From: Streptomyces sp. V4I2
Lineage (GTDB): Bacteria; Actinomycetota; Actinomycetes; Streptomycetales; Streptomycetaceae
Length of the DNA: 64,000 bases
Reading direction: 5' to 3'
Assembly (NCBI RefSeq): GCF_030817655.1
Contig: NZ_JAUSZM010000003.1
Span: 9,672,001-9,736,000 of the forward strand
Shown: piece by piece, positions 42,748-49,504 of the stretch
Layout of the letters: the number at the start of each line of letters is the position of its first letter
Position numbering within the stretch: the first letter of the stretch is position 1
Notes under the pieces: model-generated
Told to the model about the DNA's origin: nothing
What the model saw: only the letters and a program-made list of their open reading frames with translations
Databases searched by the model: none
Made by a program: the position numbers and the translations under genes

Positions 42748-43150
42748 GCGTCGCGCTGGGACGAGGACATGTCAATGCATAGGGCGTGGATGTGTGTTGC
42801 CCGGTCAGTCACGCTCGGTGTCGTCCGGTCGGCGGATCCGCGGCGGGGCATCAGCAGGCGGTGCACGGCACAGTGGAGGTATGAACGCAGACGACAGGAA
42901 CATCCTGGCCCGGGGACGCGTGGCGACCAGGCTTCCGGCCCAGGACCTGGACCGTGCGCGGCGCTTCTACGCCGAGCAGCTCGGACTGGAGCCCGTCGAC
43001 GAACGGCCCGGTGGGCTGCTGTATCGGTGCGGCGGCACGGACTTCGCCCTGTTCGAGTCGGCGGGAACCTCGCCCGGCACCTTCACCCAGATGGGATGGG
43101 AGGTGGACGACATCGAGACCGTCGTGTCCGAACTCAGGCAGCTCTACCGT

Positions 43151-43336
43151 CTTGATCGGGTTGATCGAGCCATTCGTAGGGTTGGGTCGCCCAGGGGTGC
43201 TGGGTGTGGCTATCAGGCGGCTGCCGTCTCGTGGCTTGCCTCGCTTCGCCGCCCGGCACCCCACGACGACTCGGCCGCCGATTAGGAAGTGCGAACAAGT
43301 CGCTGCGTAGAGCAATGCCGGCGAGGTCGTCCGTGG
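43151..43336 (+). ncRNA. predicted IS110 bridge RNA
   Basis: A 5' hairpin CTTGATC-5-GATCGAG (43151-43169) is followed by two large hairpins. Target loop: stem GGGGTGC (43194-43200)/GCACCCC (43256-43262); inside, TCAGG (43213-43217) equals the left target and CGCTTC (43242-43247) is complementary to GAAGCG at the right target. Donor loop: imperfect stem 43261-43277/43318-43336; inside, ATTAGG (43281-43286) equals the last six bases of the element and GTAGAGC (43307-43313) is complementary to GCTCTAC at its left end (43141-43147). Order, guide polarity and the total of about 186 nt match the IS621 bridge RNA (about 177 nt). Confidence 0.7.
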
Positions 43337-43370
43337 CACGAACAGCACGAACACACACGTCAGGAGCGCG

Positions 43371-44567
43371 ATGAGCCGGATATGGGCGGGGATCGACAGC
43401 GGCAAGGGCCATCATCACGGCCTCGCGGTGGATGCCGACGGCAAGCCGCTGCTGTCGCGGCGGGTCGCCAACGACGAACCCGAGCTGCTGAAACTGATCG
43501 GTGACGTCCTCGACCTGGCCGACGGCCGCCCGGTCACCTGGGCCATCGACATGACCGGCGGGGAACCCGCGCTGCTGCTGGCCCTGCTGATCAACCACGG
43601 TCAGGAAGTCCTCTACATGCCCGGCCGGCTGGTGAACCGGGCCTCCGACGGCTACCGCGGCGAGGGCAAGACCGACGCCCGCGACGCCTACGTCATCGCC
43701 GACCAGGCCAGAATGCGCCGCGACCTGCGGCCCATCCACCCCGGCGACGAAGCCGCCATCGAGCTCAAGCTGCTGACCGGACGCCGGGCCGACCTGGTCG
43801 AGGACCGCACCCGCGCAGTGAACCGCCTGCGCGGCACCCTGCTGAGCATGTTCCCCGCCCTGGAGCGGGCCCTGGAGGTCACCAACACCGGGCCTCTCAG
43901 GCTGCTGACGGGCTACCAGACCCCGGCCGCGATCCGCCGCGCCGGGATCTCGCGGCTGACCACCTGGCTGGCCAACCGCAAGGTCCGCAACGCGAGATCC
44001 CTGGCCGAGGCCGCGGTCGAGGCCGCCGAGCGCCAGCACACCGCCGTCCCCGGGGAGAAGACCATCGCGAAGCTGGTCCACACCCTGGCAGAGGAGGTGA
44101 TGGCCCTCAATCAGCAGATCTCTGAGATGGACAAGCTCATCGAGGGCCGGTTTCGAGAGCACGAACTCGCCGACATCCTCCTGAGCGTCCCGGGCATCGG
44201 AGCCGTGCTCGGCGCGGAGTTCCTCGCCGCTGTCGGCGGCGGCCTGGAGGAATTCGACTCGCCAGATGCTCTGGCAGCCTTCGCCGGAGTCGCCCCCGCA
44301 CCTCGCGATTCGGGCAAGGTCAGCGGCAACCTCCACCGGCCAATCACCTACCACCGCAGGCTCCAGCGGGTGTTCTACACCTCCGCGCTGGTCAGCGTCC
44401 GCTGCGACCCGAACTCGCGGAAGTTCTACGACCGCAAACGCGCGGAGGGGAAGAAGCACGTCCAGGCCGTGCTCGCCCTCGCCCGCCGACGCGTCAACGT
44501 TCTGTGGGCCCTGATCCGTGACCGACGGTGCTATCAAGTCGCACCTCCAGTGACTACGGCTGCTTGA
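43371..44567 (+). CDS. IS110-family transposase (DEDD recombinase)
   Basis: 398 residues. The N-terminal RuvC-like DEDD domain has Asp9 (WAGIDSGK), Asp60 (WAIDMTGG, where IS621 has Glu), and Asp102/Asp105 (KTDARDA). The C-terminal IS116/IS110/IS902 domain has SVPGIGAVLGAEFLA and GVAPAPRDSGK with the likely catalytic Ser314. With a bridge RNA it cuts and joins donor and target in circular form. No frameshift or stop, so it may be active. The ATG follows CAGGAGCGCG. Function of the Asp60 change is unknown; a Glu-to-Asp swap keeps the charge. Confidence 0.95.
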   Translation: MSRIWAGIDSGKGHHHGLAVDADGKPLLSRRVANDEPELLKLIGDVLDLADGRPVTWAIDMTGGEPALLLALLINHGQEVLYMPGRLVNRASDGYRGEGKTDARDAYVIADQARMRRDLRPIHPGDEAAIELKLLTGRRADLVEDRTRAVNRLRGTLLSMFPALERALEVTNTGPLRLLTGYQTPAAIRRAGISRLTTWLANRKVRNARSLAEAAVEAAERQHTAVPGEKTIAKLVHTLAEEVMALNQQISEMDKLIEGRFREHELADILLSVPGIGAVLGAEFLAAVGGGLEEFDSPDALAAFAGVAPAPRDSGKVSGNLHRPITYHRRLQRVFYTSALVSVRCDPNSRKFYDRKRAEGKKHVQAVLALARRRVNVLWALIRDRRCYQVAPPVTTAA

Positions 44568-44569
44568 CA
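44564..44569 (+). promoter_or_regulatory. outward -35 at the right end of the IS
   Basis: TTGACA overlaps the transposase stop. If the two ends join in the circular intermediate, the next 11 bases of the right end plus 6 of the left end give a 17-nt spacer to TACCGT (43145-43150), a 3/6 -10. This would be the junction promoter known from IS110-family circles, driving bridge RNA and transposase. Confidence 0.6.
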
Positions 44570-44769
44570 ACAGCATTAGGAAGCGGGGCGTGGTGTTCGA
44601 AGAGGTCGACCTGCCCGGGTTCCGAACGAAGGACGGAATCGCCGACATCGACGGGAACTACCCGAGCAAGGGAGCCCGGGGTGAACGGGCCGCCTGGTTC
44701 CGTGACAGCGAGGGAAACATGCTGGGCATCGGTGAGCCGGTCGTCTGAGCAGAGCCCTGCGGACGGCGT

Positions 44770-45039
44770 TCAACTCCCCGCGAAGGTCGAGCCGGTCAGG
44801 GCCACGCTGATCGCCTCGCTCGCGCCGCCGGGACCAGGGCCGGGCGGCCCGTCGTTCGTGGCGGCGTCGGGACTGTAGGTGGCGGAGGCGATCGCCCCGA
44901 TGGCGATCAGCAGGAGCAGGGCGACGCCCAGGGTGATCCAACTGGAGCGCAGCGACCAGAACTTGGCCCACTCCGAGCGCAGCACCCGGCGGCCGGTCAC
45001 TGTGCGGACCGACACCGTGGGAAGGGTCGTGACGGTCAT
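44770..45039 (-). pseudogene. ABC-2 type permease, C-terminally truncated
   Basis: 89 residues: a cytosolic RRVLRSEWAKFWSLRSSWIT (the usual start of ABC-2 export permeases), one helix (about 37-52), then a Gly/Pro-rich loop and the stop after SVALTGSTFAGS. Family members run to about 250-280 residues with six helices; the sequence ends exactly where the second helix (FAGLAFGQL...) should begin. The following bases run straight into the VOC gene end, so the rest was deleted. Its ATG overlaps the ATPase stop by 1 nt (TGATG). Confidence 0.8.
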
Positions 45040-45968
45040 CAGGCGGCCTCTCGGGCGGTGGTGGCGGGGGCGCTGTGGTACTCCACGGCGTCGCTGGTGA
45101 GTTCTATGAACGCCTCCTCCAAGGAGACGGACTGCGGGGTGAGTTCGTACAGCGGCACCCCGTGCTGAGCGGCGATCGCCCCGATCTCACGGGCGTCACG
45201 CCCGGAGACCAGCAGTTCCTCGGCCGAGGAGGAGCTGATCGTGACATCCGGGCCGGCCAGCAGCGAGCGCAGCTTCTGGGCCTCGGCGGTGGCGACCTTC
45301 ACACCGCCGCCGCCCGCCTCCCGTACGAAGTCGTCGACCGTCGTGTCCGCGAGCAGCCGCCCCCGCCCGATGATCACCAGATGGTCGGCGATCAGCGCGG
45401 TCTCGCTCATCAGGTGCGAGGAGAGCATCACCGCGCGGCCCTCGTCGGCCAGCCCGGACAGCAGATGGCGCACCCACAGCACGCCCTCCGGGTCGAGGCC
45501 GTTGACCGGTTCGTCGAGCATGACGACCGCGGGGTCGCCGAGCAGGGCCGCCGCGATGCCGAGCCGCTGGCCCATGCCGAGCGAGAAGGCGCCCACCCGC
45601 TTGCCGGCCACACTGCCGAGACCGGCCAGCTCGATGACCTCGTCCACCCGGCGGCGGGAGATGCCGTGGGTGTGCGCGAGCGCCATCAGGTGACCGACCG
45701 CGGTGCGCCCGGGGTGGACGGACTTGGCCTCCAACAGGGCGCCGATCTCGTGCAACGGCGCGGCGTGCTGGGCGTAACGACGCCCGTTGACGGTCACCGA
45801 GCCTCCGGTGGGGGAGTCCAGGCCGATGATCATGCGCATGGTCGTGGACTTGCCCGCGCCGTTGGGGCCCAGGAAGCCGGTCACCTCACCGGGCTTGACG
45901 GTGAAGCTCAGGTGGTCGACCACCGTCTTGTCCCCGTACCGCTTCGTCAGCTCACGCGCTTCGATCAT
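45039..45968 (-). CDS. ABC exporter ATPase
   Basis: 309 residues of the DrrA/CcmA-type (ABC-2) export group. Walker A GPNGAGKSTT, Q-loop GALLEAK, signature SLGMGQRLGIAAALL, Walker B VVMLDEPVNGLD, and switch His in SSHLMSE are intact; a C-terminal extension (EEAFIELTSDAVEYHS) is typical. ATG 45968 follows AGGAAGG. Its partner permease is reduced to one helix, so unless another permease substitutes it is an orphan. A 20-bp perfect palindrome 117 bp upstream may be its operator. Confidence 0.9.
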   Translation of the reverse strand: MIEARELTKRYGDKTVVDHLSFTVKPGEVTGFLGPNGAGKSTTMRMIIGLDSPTGGSVTVNGRRYAQHAAPLHEIGALLEAKSVHPGRTAVGHLMALAHTHGISRRRVDEVIELAGLGSVAGKRVGAFSLGMGQRLGIAAALLGDPAVVMLDEPVNGLDPEGVLWVRHLLSGLADEGRAVMLSSHLMSETALIADHLVIIGRGRLLADTTVDDFVREAGGGGVKVATAEAQKLRSLLAGPDVTISSSSAEELLVSGRDAREIGAIAAQHGVPLYELTPQSVSLEEAFIELTSDAVEYHSAPATTAREAA

Positions 45969-46084
45969 GGGAGTGGGCCTTCCTCGCCTCGAACTCGGCC
46001 ACGGGCACACCGCGGCACCTGTGTTCGACGCTATGAGGGCATCCCCTCCCCACTCTGGGACCACGGGAGACTCTTCGGCGGTCC

Positions 46085-46104
46085 ACTGGTACCGCGGTAC
46101 CAGT
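46085..46104. promoter_or_regulatory. 20-bp perfect palindrome upstream of the ABC exporter
   Basis: ACTGGTACCGCGGTACCAGT reads the same on both strands. It lies in the 145-bp gap between the S15/CocE hydrolase stop and the ABC ATPase start. Size and perfect symmetry fit a TetR- or GntR-type operator. TTGGAC (minus strand 46108-46103) overlaps it as a possible -35. Confidence 0.6.
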
Positions 46105-46113
46105 CCAAGGCGC

Positions 46114-48162
46114 CTAGAGCAGGTCGCGTGGCACCGTCTCGTTCCAGGTGCGGGAGAACACCCGGCGGTCGCCCTCGTAGCCGTCCAGGGTGGCGTCCAC
46201 GAAGAAGTCGCGCTCGTCGCAGCTGAGCCGGGTGTGCGTGACGACGCGAATGTCCCAGTCCTCGCGGCGGAACCGCATGGTCCAGGTGGACTCGCCGCTG
46301 ACGGACGTGAAGTCGTCGGCGACGGTCGCGTAGCGCTCGTAGGCGCGACGGCCGGCATCGAGCCCGATGCCGTCGAAGCGGATCAGTCCCTGGTCCTTCA
46401 CGATCTCCAGTGCGGCGTGGTAGCCGATCAGGTCCCGCTTCACGTCCCACCGCTGCTCGAGGGGTGTCAGCCGGGTCACAGCCAGGGGCGCCGTTCCCTC
46501 GGGCTCGTCGAACGGGTTCGGCGGCACCTCGTCGGGTTCGTCGGTCGGGCGGACCGGGAGCGTGAGGGTGCTGGAGTTCTCGTGGACGCTGAGCAGGGCC
46601 CTTTTGGGGGGCGGCCAGGCGAGCGGCCAGTACGACGTGGATAGGGAGAGGCGGATGCGGTGTCCGGGCGGGAAGGCCTGCGCCACTCCGTTGAGGTGGA
46701 CGGTCGCGCGGTAGCGCCGGCCCGGCTCCAGCGGCTCGGGGGCCTCGGTGCTGTCCCGCCGGGTGAGGTTGAGCAGACCGTACGTGACACGGGTGGCGGC
46801 GCCGTCGGGGCTCACATCGGACAGGCGCGCGGCCACCATCGCGACCGGCTCGTCGGCCGAGAGGTCGAGTTCCACGGTCGGCGAGCCCAGGATCTCGAGC
46901 CGTTCCGTCAAGGGCTCCGTCTCGAAGACGAGCGAGCCGCCGTCCTCCTCGCGCTGGTCGTAGGGCAGGTCCGGGGGCGCGTTGTAGGAGGCCCACTTGC
47001 CCGCGAACTGGCCGACGGACAGCGGCGAGCGCACCGTCATGGCGGCGCCGTCGCCCTCGCCGGCCGCCGCCTCCTCGCTCGGCGGGTCCGGGGAGCCGAT
47101 CCGGTGCCGCGTCAGCGGATACGTGACGGGGTGGATGTGCGGAGACGGCCAGGCGGGTTCCGCGACCCAGCGGCCCGGCCGCTCCTCGTACGAGGTGGAC
47201 GGAGGCACACTGTCCTGCATCCAGGTGTGCAGCATGGGGCCGTCCATGACACCGTTGTCGACGCCCTTGAGCCAGTGGTCCCACCACCGCACCACTTCCT
47301 GCAGGTAGCCGATGGCCGGGCCGGGTTCTCCGAGGTGGGGGAACTTGTGCGACCAGGGACCGATCAGCCCCTTGCGGGGCACGTCCAGGTTGCCGAGCAG
47401 ACGGGTCACGGCGTTGGAGTAGCCGTCCGCCCAGCCGCTGGAGGCGAGGACGGGGCAGCGTACGTCCTGGTGGTTCTCGGAGACCGAGGCGTGGCGCCAG
47501 TAGTCGTCGCGGCGCTGGTGGCGCAGCCACGGAAGCACCCAGGGACCGGTGTTCTCCAGGCGTTCGTGCCACATGTCGCGCCAGCGGTCGCCGACCACGG
47601 CGGGGTCGGGCGGGCAGGTGGCGTAGGCGAACATGGTGCCCGCCTCGGCGAGGTTGTCCGAGAGCATGGCCCCGCCCATGTAGTGCATGTCGTCGGCGTG
47701 CCGGTCGTCGGTGAAGGACGCGATGACGATGGCGCGCAGGCTCGGTGGCTGCCGGGCGGCCACCTGGAGCGCGGCGAAGGCACCCCAGGAGATGCCCATC
47801 ATGCCGGTGCGGCCGTCGCACCAGGGCTGCTCGGCCAGCCAGGCGAGGACCTCTTCGGCGTCGGCCTGTTCCTGTTCCAGGTACTCGTCCTTCAGTACCC
47901 CCTCCGAGTCACCGGTGCCGCGCACGTCGACGCGGACGCAGGCGTAGCCGTGCCCGGCGATGTACGGGTGGTGGATGGAGTCACGTACTGAGGTGAGGTC
48001 GCGCTTGCGGTAGGGGATGTACTCCAGCACCGCGGGCACGGGCTCGTCGTCCGAGGACGTGGGACGCCAGATGCGTGCCGACAGCTGTACGCCGTCGGAC
48101 ATCGGGATGCGGACGTGCTCCTCTTCTTTGGTGGCGTACGGCAGGTTGGTCACGTAACGCAT
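46114..48162 (-). CDS. CocE/NonD-family (peptidase S15-like) hydrolase
   Basis: 682 residues. Alpha/beta hydrolase core: PYRKRDLTSVRDSIHHPYIAGHGYACVRVDVRGTGDSEG, nucleophile MMGISWGAFAAL (Ser), acid in SSGWADGYSN, base in GPWSHKFPH. A jelly-roll C-terminal domain follows (LDLSADEPVAMVAARLSDV, FPPGHRIRLSLSTSYWP), as in cocaine esterase and X-Pro dipeptidyl peptidase. The protein is cytosolic (no signal). AAGGAG is 12 nt before the ATG. It begins 16 bp after the ATP-grasp stop, so the two form one operon: a ligase and an amide/ester hydrolase. The substrate is not known. Confidence 0.92.
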   Translation of the reverse strand: MRYVTNLPYATKEEEHVRIPMSDGVQLSARIWRPTSSDDEPVPAVLEYIPYRKRDLTSVRDSIHHPYIAGHGYACVRVDVRGTGDSEGVLKDEYLEQEQADAEEVLAWLAEQPWCDGRTGMMGISWGAFAALQVAARQPPSLRAIVIASFTDDRHADDMHYMGGAMLSDNLAEAGTMFAYATCPPDPAVVGDRWRDMWHERLENTGPWVLPWLRHQRRDDYWRHASVSENHQDVRCPVLASSGWADGYSNAVTRLLGNLDVPRKGLIGPWSHKFPHLGEPGPAIGYLQEVVRWWDHWLKGVDNGVMDGPMLHTWMQDSVPPSTSYEERPGRWVAEPAWPSPHIHPVTYPLTRHRIGSPDPPSEEAAAGEGDGAAMTVRSPLSVGQFAGKWASYNAPPDLPYDQREEDGGSLVFETEPLTERLEILGSPTVELDLSADEPVAMVAARLSDVSPDGAATRVTYGLLNLTRRDSTEAPEPLEPGRRYRATVHLNGVAQAFPPGHRIRLSLSTSYWPLAWPPPKRALLSVHENSSTLTLPVRPTDEPDEVPPNPFDEPEGTAPLAVTRLTPLEQRWDVKRDLIGYHAALEIVKDQGLIRFDGIGLDAGRRAYERYATVADDFTSVSGESTWTMRFRREDWDIRVVTHTRLSCDERDFFVDATLDGYEGDRRVFSRTWNETVPRDLL

Positions 48163-48178
48163 AGGGCCGACGCGCTCC

Positions 48179-49504
48179 TTACTCTCGCGGGCTGTCGTCG
48201 AACTCTCGCGGGCTCTCGTCGAAGGTGAATCCCAGTGCGGCCACGCAGTGGTCGTACTTCTCCCGCAGGTCCTCCTCGTCGCTGCCGCCGGTGAAGATGT
48301 GGGCCAACTCGAAGCTGTAGCTGTCCTGTTGGGGGAGTCCCGACAGTCGCTGCCCCGCTTCGGGCGTGACGTCCACGCGCACGCCGTCGGTCTCGCGCTC
48401 GATGCGGGCGAGGTCCTCGGTCGAGGGCACATGGCCCACCACCCCGTCGGTGAACCAGCGGTAGTACCACTTCGCGGCCATCGCGTACGGCCCCTGCCGA
48501 TGCGGCATGTGCGGGTCGTCGCCGAGGGCGAGGCTGAGCATGCAGTGGTGGTTGGGTACGCCGTCGACGTACTGGAACAGCTCGGCGTGGGACTGGGAGT
48601 GCCGGGGGTTGATCTCCAGCAGACGGATCTCCTGGCTCTGCGGGTCGTAGAAGTACTCCACGCTGAAGGTGGCCGAGTCGAAGCCGATCTGACGCATCAC
48701 CCGCTGGGTGACGTCGTGGAGCTGCCCGATCACCTGCGGCGGCAGGGTGGAGGGGTACTGGTGGCGCAGGAAGCAGGGCGTGTCGGGGTAGTTGATGGAG
48801 TCCAAGGCGCCGTAGACGGTCACTTCGCCCTGATGGACGTAGCCTTCGACGGCGACCTGGATCCCCGACATCTCCTCCTCCGCGAGGCAGACCTGCCCGC
48901 CGACGCCGTGCATCTCGGGCGGCAGCTCGATTCGGTCGAGGATGTACTCGAAGGGCCGGCCGACCCGGGCGATTCCCTCACGGATCTCGGCGACGGCGGC
49001 CCGGAACTCGTCCAAGTCCTTGACGCCGAAGGCGAGTTCGGAGGAGTAGGAGAGCGCCGGCTTGAGCCACATGGGGAAGCGCACGCCCTCCGGGGGGCGG
49101 GGGTCGTCGGCCTCCAGATCCACCTTGCCGAACCGCGGGATCCTGTCGGTGACCTTCTGCTGCTCGAGCCGGCTCCAGTACTTGTGCTCGCACTTGACCA
49201 CCGACTCCAGGCTGGTGCTGCGGGTTCCGTAGCGCTCGCCGAGGACGGGGACCATGGTGCTGACCGGGAAGTCCCAGTAGCCGACGATCGCGTCGATGCT
49301 TCCGTCGAAGGCATCCAGTATCCCCTGGGCCTTGTCGATGAGCTCCGGCACCGACACCTCGCCGCCCTGCAGTTCGTCGGTCGACAGCAAGGGGTGAAAG
49401 CGCAGTGCTCTCGCACCCGGCACCGCGTGGAGCGTCGGCAGGTTGGCCTCGTCGAGGCCGAGCACAAAGATGTTCTTCGCATCGTTCACGTTCCTGTCAG
49501 GCAC
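48179..49504 (-). CDS. ATP-grasp ligase
   Basis: 441 residues of the ATP-grasp superfamily, enzymes that activate a carboxylate as acyl phosphate and join it to an amine or thiol. The N-terminal domain (about 1-105) has the pre-ATP fold; the ATP site is PMWLKPALSYSSELAFGV (Lys) and the metal site SVEYFYDPQSQEIRLLEINPRHSQSH (Glu and Asn). AVEGYVHQGEVTVYGALDSINYPDT is the strand before it. The last 14 residues are a duplication (FDESPRE then FDDSPRE). GTG 49504 follows GGAAGG by 5 nt. It is coupled to an S15/CocE hydrolase. Probably a peptide- or amide-forming ligase; substrates unknown. Confidence 0.9.
   Translation of the reverse strand: MPDRNVNDAKNIFVLGLDEANLPTLHAVPGARALRFHPLLSTDELQGGEVSVPELIDKAQGILDAFDGSIDAIVGYWDFPVSTMVPVLGERYGTRSTSLESVVKCEHKYWSRLEQQKVTDRIPRFGKVDLEADDPRPPEGVRFPMWLKPALSYSSELAFGVKDLDEFRAAVAEIREGIARVGRPFEYILDRIELPPEMHGVGGQVCLAEEEMSGIQVAVEGYVHQGEVTVYGALDSINYPDTPCFLRHQYPSTLPPQVIGQLHDVTQRVMRQIGFDSATFSVEYFYDPQSQEIRLLEINPRHSQSHAELFQYVDGVPNHHCMLSLALGDDPHMPHRQGPYAMAAKWYYRWFTDGVVGHVPSTEDLARIERETDGVRVDVTPEAGQRLSGLPQQDSYSFELAHIFTGGSDEEDLREKYDHCVAALGFTFDESPREFDDSPRE

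What the first reader, a model, noticed from the sequence alone, without database searches (positions are those of the whole stretch)
43151..43336. A readable bridge RNA in the left end of an IS110-family element, with guides matching both donor ends and both target sides
The left end holds two adjacent hairpins. In the first, TCAGG (43213-43217) equals the target bases left of the insertion and CGCTTC (43242-43247) is complementary to the target bases on the right (GAAGCG). In the second, ATTAGG (43281-43286) equals the element's own last six bases and GTAGAGC (43307-43313) is complementary to GCTCTAC at its left end. Each pair has the polarity known for IS621 target- and donor-binding loops (5' guide like the top strand, 3' guide its complement), and the order target loop then donor loop is the same. 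Four matches in the right order and loops are hard to explain by chance.
Basis: partly seen in the sequence, partly recalled or inferred. Interest (0 to 1): 0.88.

Follow-up and report, generated by a model that had tools for sequence, protein, structure and literature searches.

The report
Bridge RNA of Streptomyces IS110 element
A small jumping element in a Streptomyces-like genome encodes a guide RNA whose two loops spell out both the DNA site it jumped into and its own ends, as in the recently described "bridge RNA" elements, and most of its examined relatives carry a guide that fits their own landing site.

Summary
The four matches are real, at the stated coordinates, and they are a bridge RNA. 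Intact copies of the interrupted glyoxalase-like gene in relatives, and copies of the element elsewhere, put a GC core at both ends (43141-43142, 44583-44584). Left target TCAGGCA, right target GGGGC, left donor TTAGGAA and right donor TCTAC pair with guides 43213-43221, 43238-43244, 43282-43290 and 43307-43313: the 14-position geometry of IS621, with 29 Watson-Crick and 3 wobble pairs of 32. Over 61 left and 44 right sites (window included), and 37 and 27 held-out ones, guides fit their own flanks far better than flanks of other elements with the same core (0 of 10,000 shuffles in each test); 12 of the 98 left sites fit badly. Cores vary (GC, TC, GT) and guides follow. Compensatory changes support the two-loop fold, and a TTGACA/TAnnnT promoter would form in the circle. 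It is a new member of a known kind (IS110-group bridge RNA). Less expected: guides of this clade often point at gene borders, stop codons (18 of 35 sites) or start codons (9 of 12). No RNA or recombination was measured.

The parts
43143..44582 (+). IS110-group insertion sequence, core to core (cores outside)
   Evidence: Homology with copies elsewhere starts at 43141 and runs through the right end; empty sites in relatives
43134..43140 (+). left target TCAGGCA
   Evidence: LTG 43213-43219 TCAGGCG, one G.T wobble; in homologs the fit spans 7 positions and drops at the 8th
43141..43142 (+). core dinucleotide GC, left copy
   Evidence: left core = right core in 67 of 67 elements with both ends
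43143..43147 (+). right donor TCTAC
   Evidence: complement of RDG 43307-43311; 56 of 58 match over 5 nt, part of which the parser fixed; the free first position agrees in 93 of 93
43145..43150 (+). -10 element TACCGT, active only in the circle (inferred)
   Evidence: 17 nt from the TTGACA-type box of the right end across the junction in 59 of 67 elements, 18 nt in 8 (the parser required both boxes, not their distance)
43157..43337 (+). predicted bridge RNA (5' end by promoter spacing; 3' end approximate)
   Evidence: model R1 finds 7 copies in the own genome, this one included
43170..43181 (+). 5' stem-loop
   Evidence: 2 consensus pairs, 1 with double changes
43194..43262 (+). target-binding loop hairpin (outer stem 43194-43210 / 43248-43262, inner stem 43223-43225 / 43233-43235)
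   Evidence: 6 of 14 outer pairs with compensatory changes; coordinates
43213..43221 (+). left target guide TCAGGCG + core GC
43238..43244 (+). right target guide GCCTC + core GC
43245..43246 (+). handshake bases TT, complementary to donor AA 44581-44582
   Evidence: complementary in 73 of 73 parsed right ends, but only two types, AA 70 and AG 3, and the parser required AA or AG on the donor side
43263..43334 (+). donor-binding loop hairpin (outer stem 43263-43278 / 43317-43334, inner stem 43291-43294 / 43300-43303)
43282..43290 (+). left donor guide TTAGGAA + GT (U.G wobble at the last core base)
43307..43313 (+). right donor guide GTAGA + core GC
   Evidence: RDG core equals left core in 58 of 58 and 35 of 35 held-out
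43371..44567 (+). IS110 recombinase, 398 aa (D9, D60, D102, D105, S314)
   Evidence: Pfam DEDD_Tnp_IS110 3.6e-50 and Transposase_20 1.8e-21; PDB hits ISCro4 and IS621; residues
44564..44569 (+). -35 element TTGACA in the right end; the recombinase stop codon TGA (44565-44567) lies inside it
44576..44582 (+). left donor TTAGGAA
44583..44584 (+). core dinucleotide GC, right copy
44585..44589 (+). right target GGGGC (RTG complement GAGGC, one U.G wobble)
42881..43140 (+). 5' piece of the interrupted glyoxalase (VOC)-type gene (start codon approximate)
   Evidence: Pfam Glyoxalase 1.4e-05 for 42872-43138; intact relatives
44585..44748 (+). 3' piece of the interrupted gene
   Evidence: aligns with intact genes of relatives in L107-L115; no Pfam hit on its own (44581-44748)

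Best explanation
The left end encodes an IS110-group bridge RNA of about 180 nt. When the recombinase excises the element as a circle, the -35 box in the right end and the -10 box in the left end come together and drive transcription of this RNA (inferred). The first internal loop pairs with the two strands of a 14-position target (TCAGGCA-GC-GGGGC here), the second with the RE-LE junction (TTAGGAA-GC-TCTAC). The recombinase then exchanges strands at the shared GC core, inserting the element without loss. Shown: guide/flank matching, core identity, RNA fold, the uninterrupted site in relatives, catalytic residues. Inferred: transcription, binding, strand exchange.
For: Own guides fit own flanks. 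LTG 7 positions: 5.70 of 7 (n 61, window included) against 3.68 for flanks shuffled within the same core. RTG 6 positions: 4.18 (n 44) against 2.04. Held-out loci: 6.38 (n 37) against 4.77, and RTG 5 positions 3.93 (n 27) against 1.89. 0 of 10,000 shuffles reached the observed value in each test. The fit drops at LT -8 and RT +6, the 14-position frame described for IS621 (passages of PMC11208158). RTG core equals right core in 44 of 44 and 29 of 29; RDG core equals left core in 58 of 58 and 35 of 35; left core equals right core in 67 of 67. Eight guide sets occur at two or three different sites each (20 entries, 19 distinct right flanks), and the sites largely share the guide's motif. Consensus fold: 98.9% of cells paired, 63 doubly changed cells against 14.3 in shuffles, slid controls at most 12. 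Promoter spacing 17 (59) or 18 (8) of 67. Uninterrupted target in relatives. The two PDB hits are ISCro4 and IS621 recombinases. RNAs found by model R1 in other families also carry left guides that fit the left flank, by eye: L217/L228/L230, L219, L221, L226.
Against: No RNA or recombination was measured. 10 of 61 left sites score 2 or less (L009, L016, L021, L028, L032, L038, L054, L069, L072, L085): by eye six are one-base register shifts and one (L032) a doubled left end, but L054, L069 and L072 are real misfits; 2 of 37 held-out score 1 (by eye L172 and L175, register shifts). RT +5 misfits in 30 of 71 right sites and RT +2 in 19 of 71. Wobble explains only 15 of 34 LT and 16 of 71 RT misfits. 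The donor-loop handshake base does not fit target position 7 beyond chance (18 of 91; shuffled mean 17.3). The window's single-sequence fold is not unusually stable (z -1.43, 18 of 200 shuffles as good). No relevant Rfam match. Of 16 loci looked at by eye, L213, L214, L223 and L224 show no clear left fit. Shuffles do not remove relatedness, and the parser fixed part of the donor letters (see full report).
Confidence: 0.95

Rival explanations
1. Coincidence: short matches in a G+C-rich region, picked by eye.
For: RTG-like matches alone are common (12,640 of 20,000 shuffles hold one at 1 mismatch).
Against: All four in order in 0 of 20,000 shuffles; the match recurs with different letters in many homologs and in held-out ones.
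Confidence: 0.005
2. Guide capture: the element copies its landing site into its RNA after insertion, so guide follows target rather than target following guide.
For: Elements about 91% identical over their length carry different guides, each fitting its own site.
Against: Identical guides sit at two or three different sites (8 guide sets, 19 distinct right flanks), and those sites misfit the guide at scattered positions; capture would make each guide an exact copy of its own site.
Confidence: 0.02
3. The region is a structured 5' leader that only regulates the recombinase gene.
For: It lies directly upstream of the gene and is structured. PMC11208160 (passages) mentions small RNAs thought to modulate the recombinase of ISPpu9.
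Against: A leader would not need internal loops that track flanking host DNA or the element's own far end. A regulatory side role is not excluded.
Confidence: 0.015

Closest known systems
IS621 bridge RNA (E. coli; PMC11208160, PMC11208158; passages read)
   Same: RNA in the left end upstream of the recombinase gene, 177 nt there and about 180 nt here; 5' stem-loop, then target loop, then donor loop; 5' guide pairs with the bottom strand, 3' guide with the top strand; positions 1-14 around a 2-nt core included in the guides; promoter rebuilt in the circle.
   Different: Core GC (relatives TC and GT) instead of CT, with C at the second core position where T is described as almost invariant for IS621 and its relatives; right target guide fits 5 positions beyond the core (wild-type IS621 pairs 4 nt including the core, and longer ones are reported for other IS110s); aspartate instead of glutamate at the second catalytic position; no support here for the donor-loop handshake; gene-border targets, not REP elements.
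IS110-type seekRNA (PMC11187229; abstract and passages read)
   Same: Same family and same idea: an RNA from the noncoding region with short stretches fitting both target strands.
   Different: That work used four IS1111 and one IS110 elements and describes a shorter processed RNA of 70-100 nt; whether this RNA is processed is unknown.
IS900 of Mycobacterium (PMC8141618; passages read)
   Same: IS110-family element of similar size (1,451 bp) whose reported target motif CATGNNNNNNTCTCCTT resembles the start-codon plus Shine-Dalgarno targets of some relatives of the window element (e.g. L072 TCATGAGA-GT-TCCTTCT).
   Different: The window element's own target is not of that form. Kinship with IS900 was not tested, and no IS900 RNA was examined.

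Membership tests
IS110 family recombinase | RuvC-like DEDD domain plus C-terminal Tnp domain | tested here: met
   Pfam PF01548 3.6e-50 and PF02371 1.8e-21, both above cut-off
IS110 family recombinase | D, E, D, D and catalytic serine | tested here: met
   D9, D60, D102, S314 in 85 of 85 and D105 in 84 of 85 full-length distinct relatives. The E of IS621 is D here in all 85, a conservative change; which residue is equivalent to E60 was judged by motif and numbering, not by structure
IS110 group (not IS1111) | long left end upstream of the gene, short right end | tested here: met
   228 nt from 43143 to 43370; 15 nt from the stop codon to 44582
IS110 group bridge RNA | 5' stem-loop, target loop, donor loop, in that order | tested here: met
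IS110 group bridge RNA | guides in the first loop fit the insertion site of each element | tested here: met
   0 of 10,000 shuffles in each test; 12 of 98 left sites score 2 or less
IS110 group bridge RNA | guides in the second loop fit the element's own ends | tested here: met
   RD 5 nt 56 of 58, LD 8 nt 24 of 30 exact, 28 of 29 held-out; part of these letters was required by the parser. At freely read positions: RD first base T/C 93 of 93, LD fifth-from-last A/G 58 of 59, LD sixth-from-last 53 of 59. Weaker than the target evidence because donor letters vary little
IS110 group bridge RNA | shared core dinucleotide at both ends, present in the guides | tested here: met
   67 of 67 left = right; 44 of 44 RTG; 58 of 58 RDG; LTG core 52 of 61, register shifts and misfits in the rest; in the window the LDG core is GT against GC, a wobble
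IS110 group bridge RNA | CT core as in IS621 | tested here: not met
   GC, TC and GT only among matched cores. This is a property of IS621 and its near relatives, not of the whole family
IS110 group bridge RNA | handshake bases | tested here: inconclusive
   target-loop side 73 of 73 but only two types and donor side limited by the parser; donor-loop side at chance, 18 of 91
IS110 group bridge RNA | RNA expressed, bound by the recombinase, needed for recombination | not testable with these tools
   no expression or biochemical data

The most novel reading that the evidence does not exclude
In this actinobacterial clade natural bridge-RNA guides are tuned to gene borders: one set reads the stop codon with its preceding codons (e.g. 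TCAGGCGGC = complement of GCC GCC TGA), another the start codon with the Shine-Dalgarno sequence. One guide thus gives many landing sites that spare the coding sequence, and the clade has also changed its core dinucleotide several times (four changes on a quick tree) with the guides following.
Probability: 0.5. Interest if true: 0.6.

Novelty: new member of a known kind. Interest (0 to 1): 0.42.

Why it matters
It gives a bridge-RNA system in high-G+C actinobacteria with its exact boundaries, a GC core and a natural series of 98 left and 71 right guide/site pairs. That series shows which positions matter (7 + 2 + 5) and offers TC and GT core relatives for testing what sets core choice. The gene-border bias of the guides suggests how such elements find many harmless sites with one short guide. 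It may also explain older target consensuses such as that of IS900, though that link is only a lead.

Tried and rejected

Chance and guide capture: see rivals. Handshake of the donor loop with target position 7: not supported. Wobble as a general explanation of misfits: not supported for the right target. Residues after D60 as sole determinant of the core: weakened by L055, which has core GC with the loop DLNHGGA shared by GT members. Rfam: the one listed hit is a microRNA model far below its gathering score. Two first-pass parsers were replaced: that missed most left anchors of the GC type, that found only 6 elements.

Rows dropped: 20 of 80 loci gave no parse (41 new distinct elements from the other 60 after removing those already seen); of the 73 elements only 61 had a usable left side and 44 a usable right side; loci of the first set without any parse were not counted. 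The start/stop test used the 12 and 35 sites with both ends and enough flank; L174 is in both. Alignment A1 holds 34 sequences kept after a similarity filter, L032 and L105 left out. The tree holds 65 distinct proteins. The misfit table used left sites with at least 4 fits (86).

Full report
What was claimed.

The sequence. The protein at 43371-44567 has both IS110 domains, and its two PDB hits by sequence are the ISCro4 and IS621 recombinases. The window lies in an 11.1 Mb genome of 4 contigs. The 80 best related loci of a genome collection come mostly from Streptomyces and Kitasatospora, with a few from other actinobacteria such as Actinacidiphila, Streptacidiphilus, Amycolatopsis and Nonomuraea. 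In 276 of 295 same-genus genomes the whole element gives some DNA match; many of these are weak, with E-values near 1e-4.

Boundaries and core. I fetched copies and relatives of the element and compared their ends. The other six rows (L004, L018, L021, L024, L032, L034) do not show this end at the expected place. The glyoxalase-like gene that the element interrupts is intact in relatives. In L112 it reads GAACTCAGGCGGCGTGGC through the site, which aligns with the window if the left flank is ...TCAGGCA and a GC core is shared. Left and right cores are the same in 67 of 67 elements with both ends. Three core types occur among the matched pairs: GC (the window's type), TC and GT.

Corrected guides of the window element. 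Left target TCAGGCA plus core GC against guide TCAGGCG-GC (43213-43221). Core plus right target GC-GGGGC against guide GCCTC-GC (43238-43244). Left donor TTAGGAA plus core GC against guide TTAGGAA-GT (43282-43290). Core plus right donor GC-TCTAC against guide GTAGA-GC (43307-43313). Of 32 positions 29 are Watson-Crick and 3 are G.U/G.T wobbles (counted by hand). TT after the right target guide is complementary to the donor's AA, which is the handshake position in IS621 (passages of PMC11208158).

Is it more than chance? For the window alone, 0 of 20,000 dinucleotide shuffles of the RNA held all four at the observed quality in order (thresholds set after seeing the fit). The stronger test uses homologs. 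Their guides differ, and each guide was compared with its own flank and with flanks of other elements of the same core. First set: left guide 5.70 of 7 (n 61, window included) against 3.68; right guide 4.18 of 6 (n 44) against 2.04. Held-out set from a different collection: 6.38 of 7 (n 37) against 4.77; 3.93 of 5 (n 27) against 1.89. No shuffle of 10,000 reached the observed value in any of the tests. These shuffles do not remove relatedness, and the held-out set contains relatives of the first. The fit falls at the 8th base left of the core and the 6th right of it, so the guided stretch is 7 + 2 + 5, as in IS621. Misfits are real: 10 of 61 left sites score 2 or less. By eye six of these are one-base register shifts and one is a doubled left end, but L054, L069 and L072 are not explained that way. 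What the parser fixed: target guides, target flanks and cores were read freely, but the right-end pattern required TTGA(C/T) and AT(T/G/C)(A/G)GGA(A/G), the left-end pattern (T/C)(C/A)TA(C/A)(C/G)(G/T)T, and the donor guides GGA(A/G) and TA(A/G)(A/G). Donor agreement is therefore partly built in. At freely read donor positions it is 93 of 93 (first base of the right donor) and 58 of 59 and 53 of 59 (fifth and sixth from the end of the left donor).

Same guide, several sites. Eight guide sets occur at two or three different sites each: 20 entries, 19 distinct right flanks, as L146 and L183 look like the same site in two strains. The sites largely share the guided motif while differing elsewhere. 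Two further sets were seen by eye: a pair in G101 and three copies in G404, outside the genus. This is what a fixed guide choosing targets predicts, and it argues against guides being copied from the landing site.

Fold and promoter. An alignment of 34 RNAs gives a 5' stem-loop, a target hairpin and a donor hairpin with the guides in the internal loops. 98.9% of cells are paired, 10 of 38 pairs have compensatory changes, and 63 doubly changed cells are seen against 14.3 in shuffles; slid controls give at most 12. The window RNA alone does not fold unusually well (z -1.43). In the 67 elements with both ends the TTGA(C/T)-type box of the right end would lie 17 (59) or 18 (8) nt from the TAC(C/G)(T/G)T box of the left end when the ends join (the boxes were required by the parser, their distance was not). 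In the window the recombinase stop codon lies inside the TTGACA. A covariance model of the RNA finds 7 copies in the own genome, the window's included, and matches in 12 of 148 genomes drawn from the class, in 7 of 81 genera, the own included. I looked by eye at 16 of these loci. Left guides fit the left flank in L217/L228/L230, L218, L219, L221 and L226; in part in L215, L220, L222/L229 and L225; not clearly in L213 (left end lost), L214, L223 and L224.

How it most likely works. As IS621: the excised circle makes the RNA; the target loop and donor loop hold the two DNAs; the recombinase cuts and exchanges at the shared core. Everything after the sequence evidence is inferred by kinship. The catalytic residues are in place: D9, D60, D102 and S314 in 85 of 85 relatives, D105 in 84 of 85. 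The second acid is Asp, not the Glu of IS621.

What differs from IS621. The core is GC, TC or GT. On a quick tree of 65 proteins the core needs 4 changes. Residues after D60 go with the core (DMTGGEP-like with GC, DLADGG or DLNAGG with TC, DLNHGG or DVADGM with GT), but this follows lineages, and L055 breaks it. The donor-loop handshake with target position 7 is at chance (18 of 91, shuffled mean 17.3).

Gene borders. Left guides mostly contain TCA (96 of 114 elements, 42 of 56 distinct guides). At 18 of 35 sites with TCAG the host gene on the other strand ends exactly there with an in-frame TGA, by a simple frame and third-position G+C criterion, against 186 of 1,749 TCAG and 38 of 166 TCAG(G/T)C(G/C) occurrences in background sequence (Fisher p 4e-9 and 0.0015). 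At 9 of 12 sites with CAT a gene on the other strand starts there, against 321 of 1,050 TCAT and 75 of 235 CAT-plus-Shine-Dalgarno-like occurrences (p 0.002 and 0.004). The full nine-letter TCAGGCGGC met the stop criterion in 1 of 8 background occurrences, so the motif alone does not guarantee a border. The window's own insertion is not of this kind: it broke a gene. Loss of cells with harmful insertions could produce part of this bias. A target motif of similar look, CATGNNNNNNTCTCCTT, is reported for IS900 (passage of PMC8141618).

Comparison with print. The mechanism is that of PMC11208160 and PMC11208158 (passages only), with the parallel seekRNA work PMC11187229 (abstract and passages). 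My searches of the held library found no paper joining 'bridge RNA' with IS900 (0 papers). Among the papers listed (2; 25 of 2,819; 10 of 139; 2) none was, by title and start of abstract, about bridge RNAs of Streptomyces elements or about stop-codon targeting. These lists are capped, and subscription journals and preprints are not held. It is a new member of a known kind, with an unusual core and an interesting bias in what the guides point at.

Noticed in passing
L105, left flank: The left flank of this GT-core element reads ATTAGGAG-GT, like a left donor rather than like its own target guide, but no TTGACA lies upstream; possibly insertion into a donor-like site.
   Followed up: partly
L032, left end: The first 30 or so bases of the left end are doubled in tandem; the outer copy is flanked by ATCAAACT, which fits the left target guide.
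   Followed up: partly
L055 (G036): Right core, right target guide core and right donor guide core are all GC (left side not parsed), inside a clade of GT-core elements and with the same DLNHGGA loop: a natural core switch.
   Followed up: partly
G000:C3:182864, 10437644, 540155, 290498, 1125776; G000:C2:102702: Six further bridge-RNA-like copies in the window's genome; some belong to incomplete elements.
   Followed up: partly
44564-44569: The recombinase stop codon TGA (44565-44567) lies inside the TTGACA -35 box, so the coding end and the promoter half overlap.
   Followed up: yes
45039-46358 and 46114-48432, minus strand: Neighbouring ABC transporter ATPase and an X-Pro dipeptidyl-peptidase (S15/PepX) type hydrolase; ordinary genes downstream of the element.
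   Followed up: no
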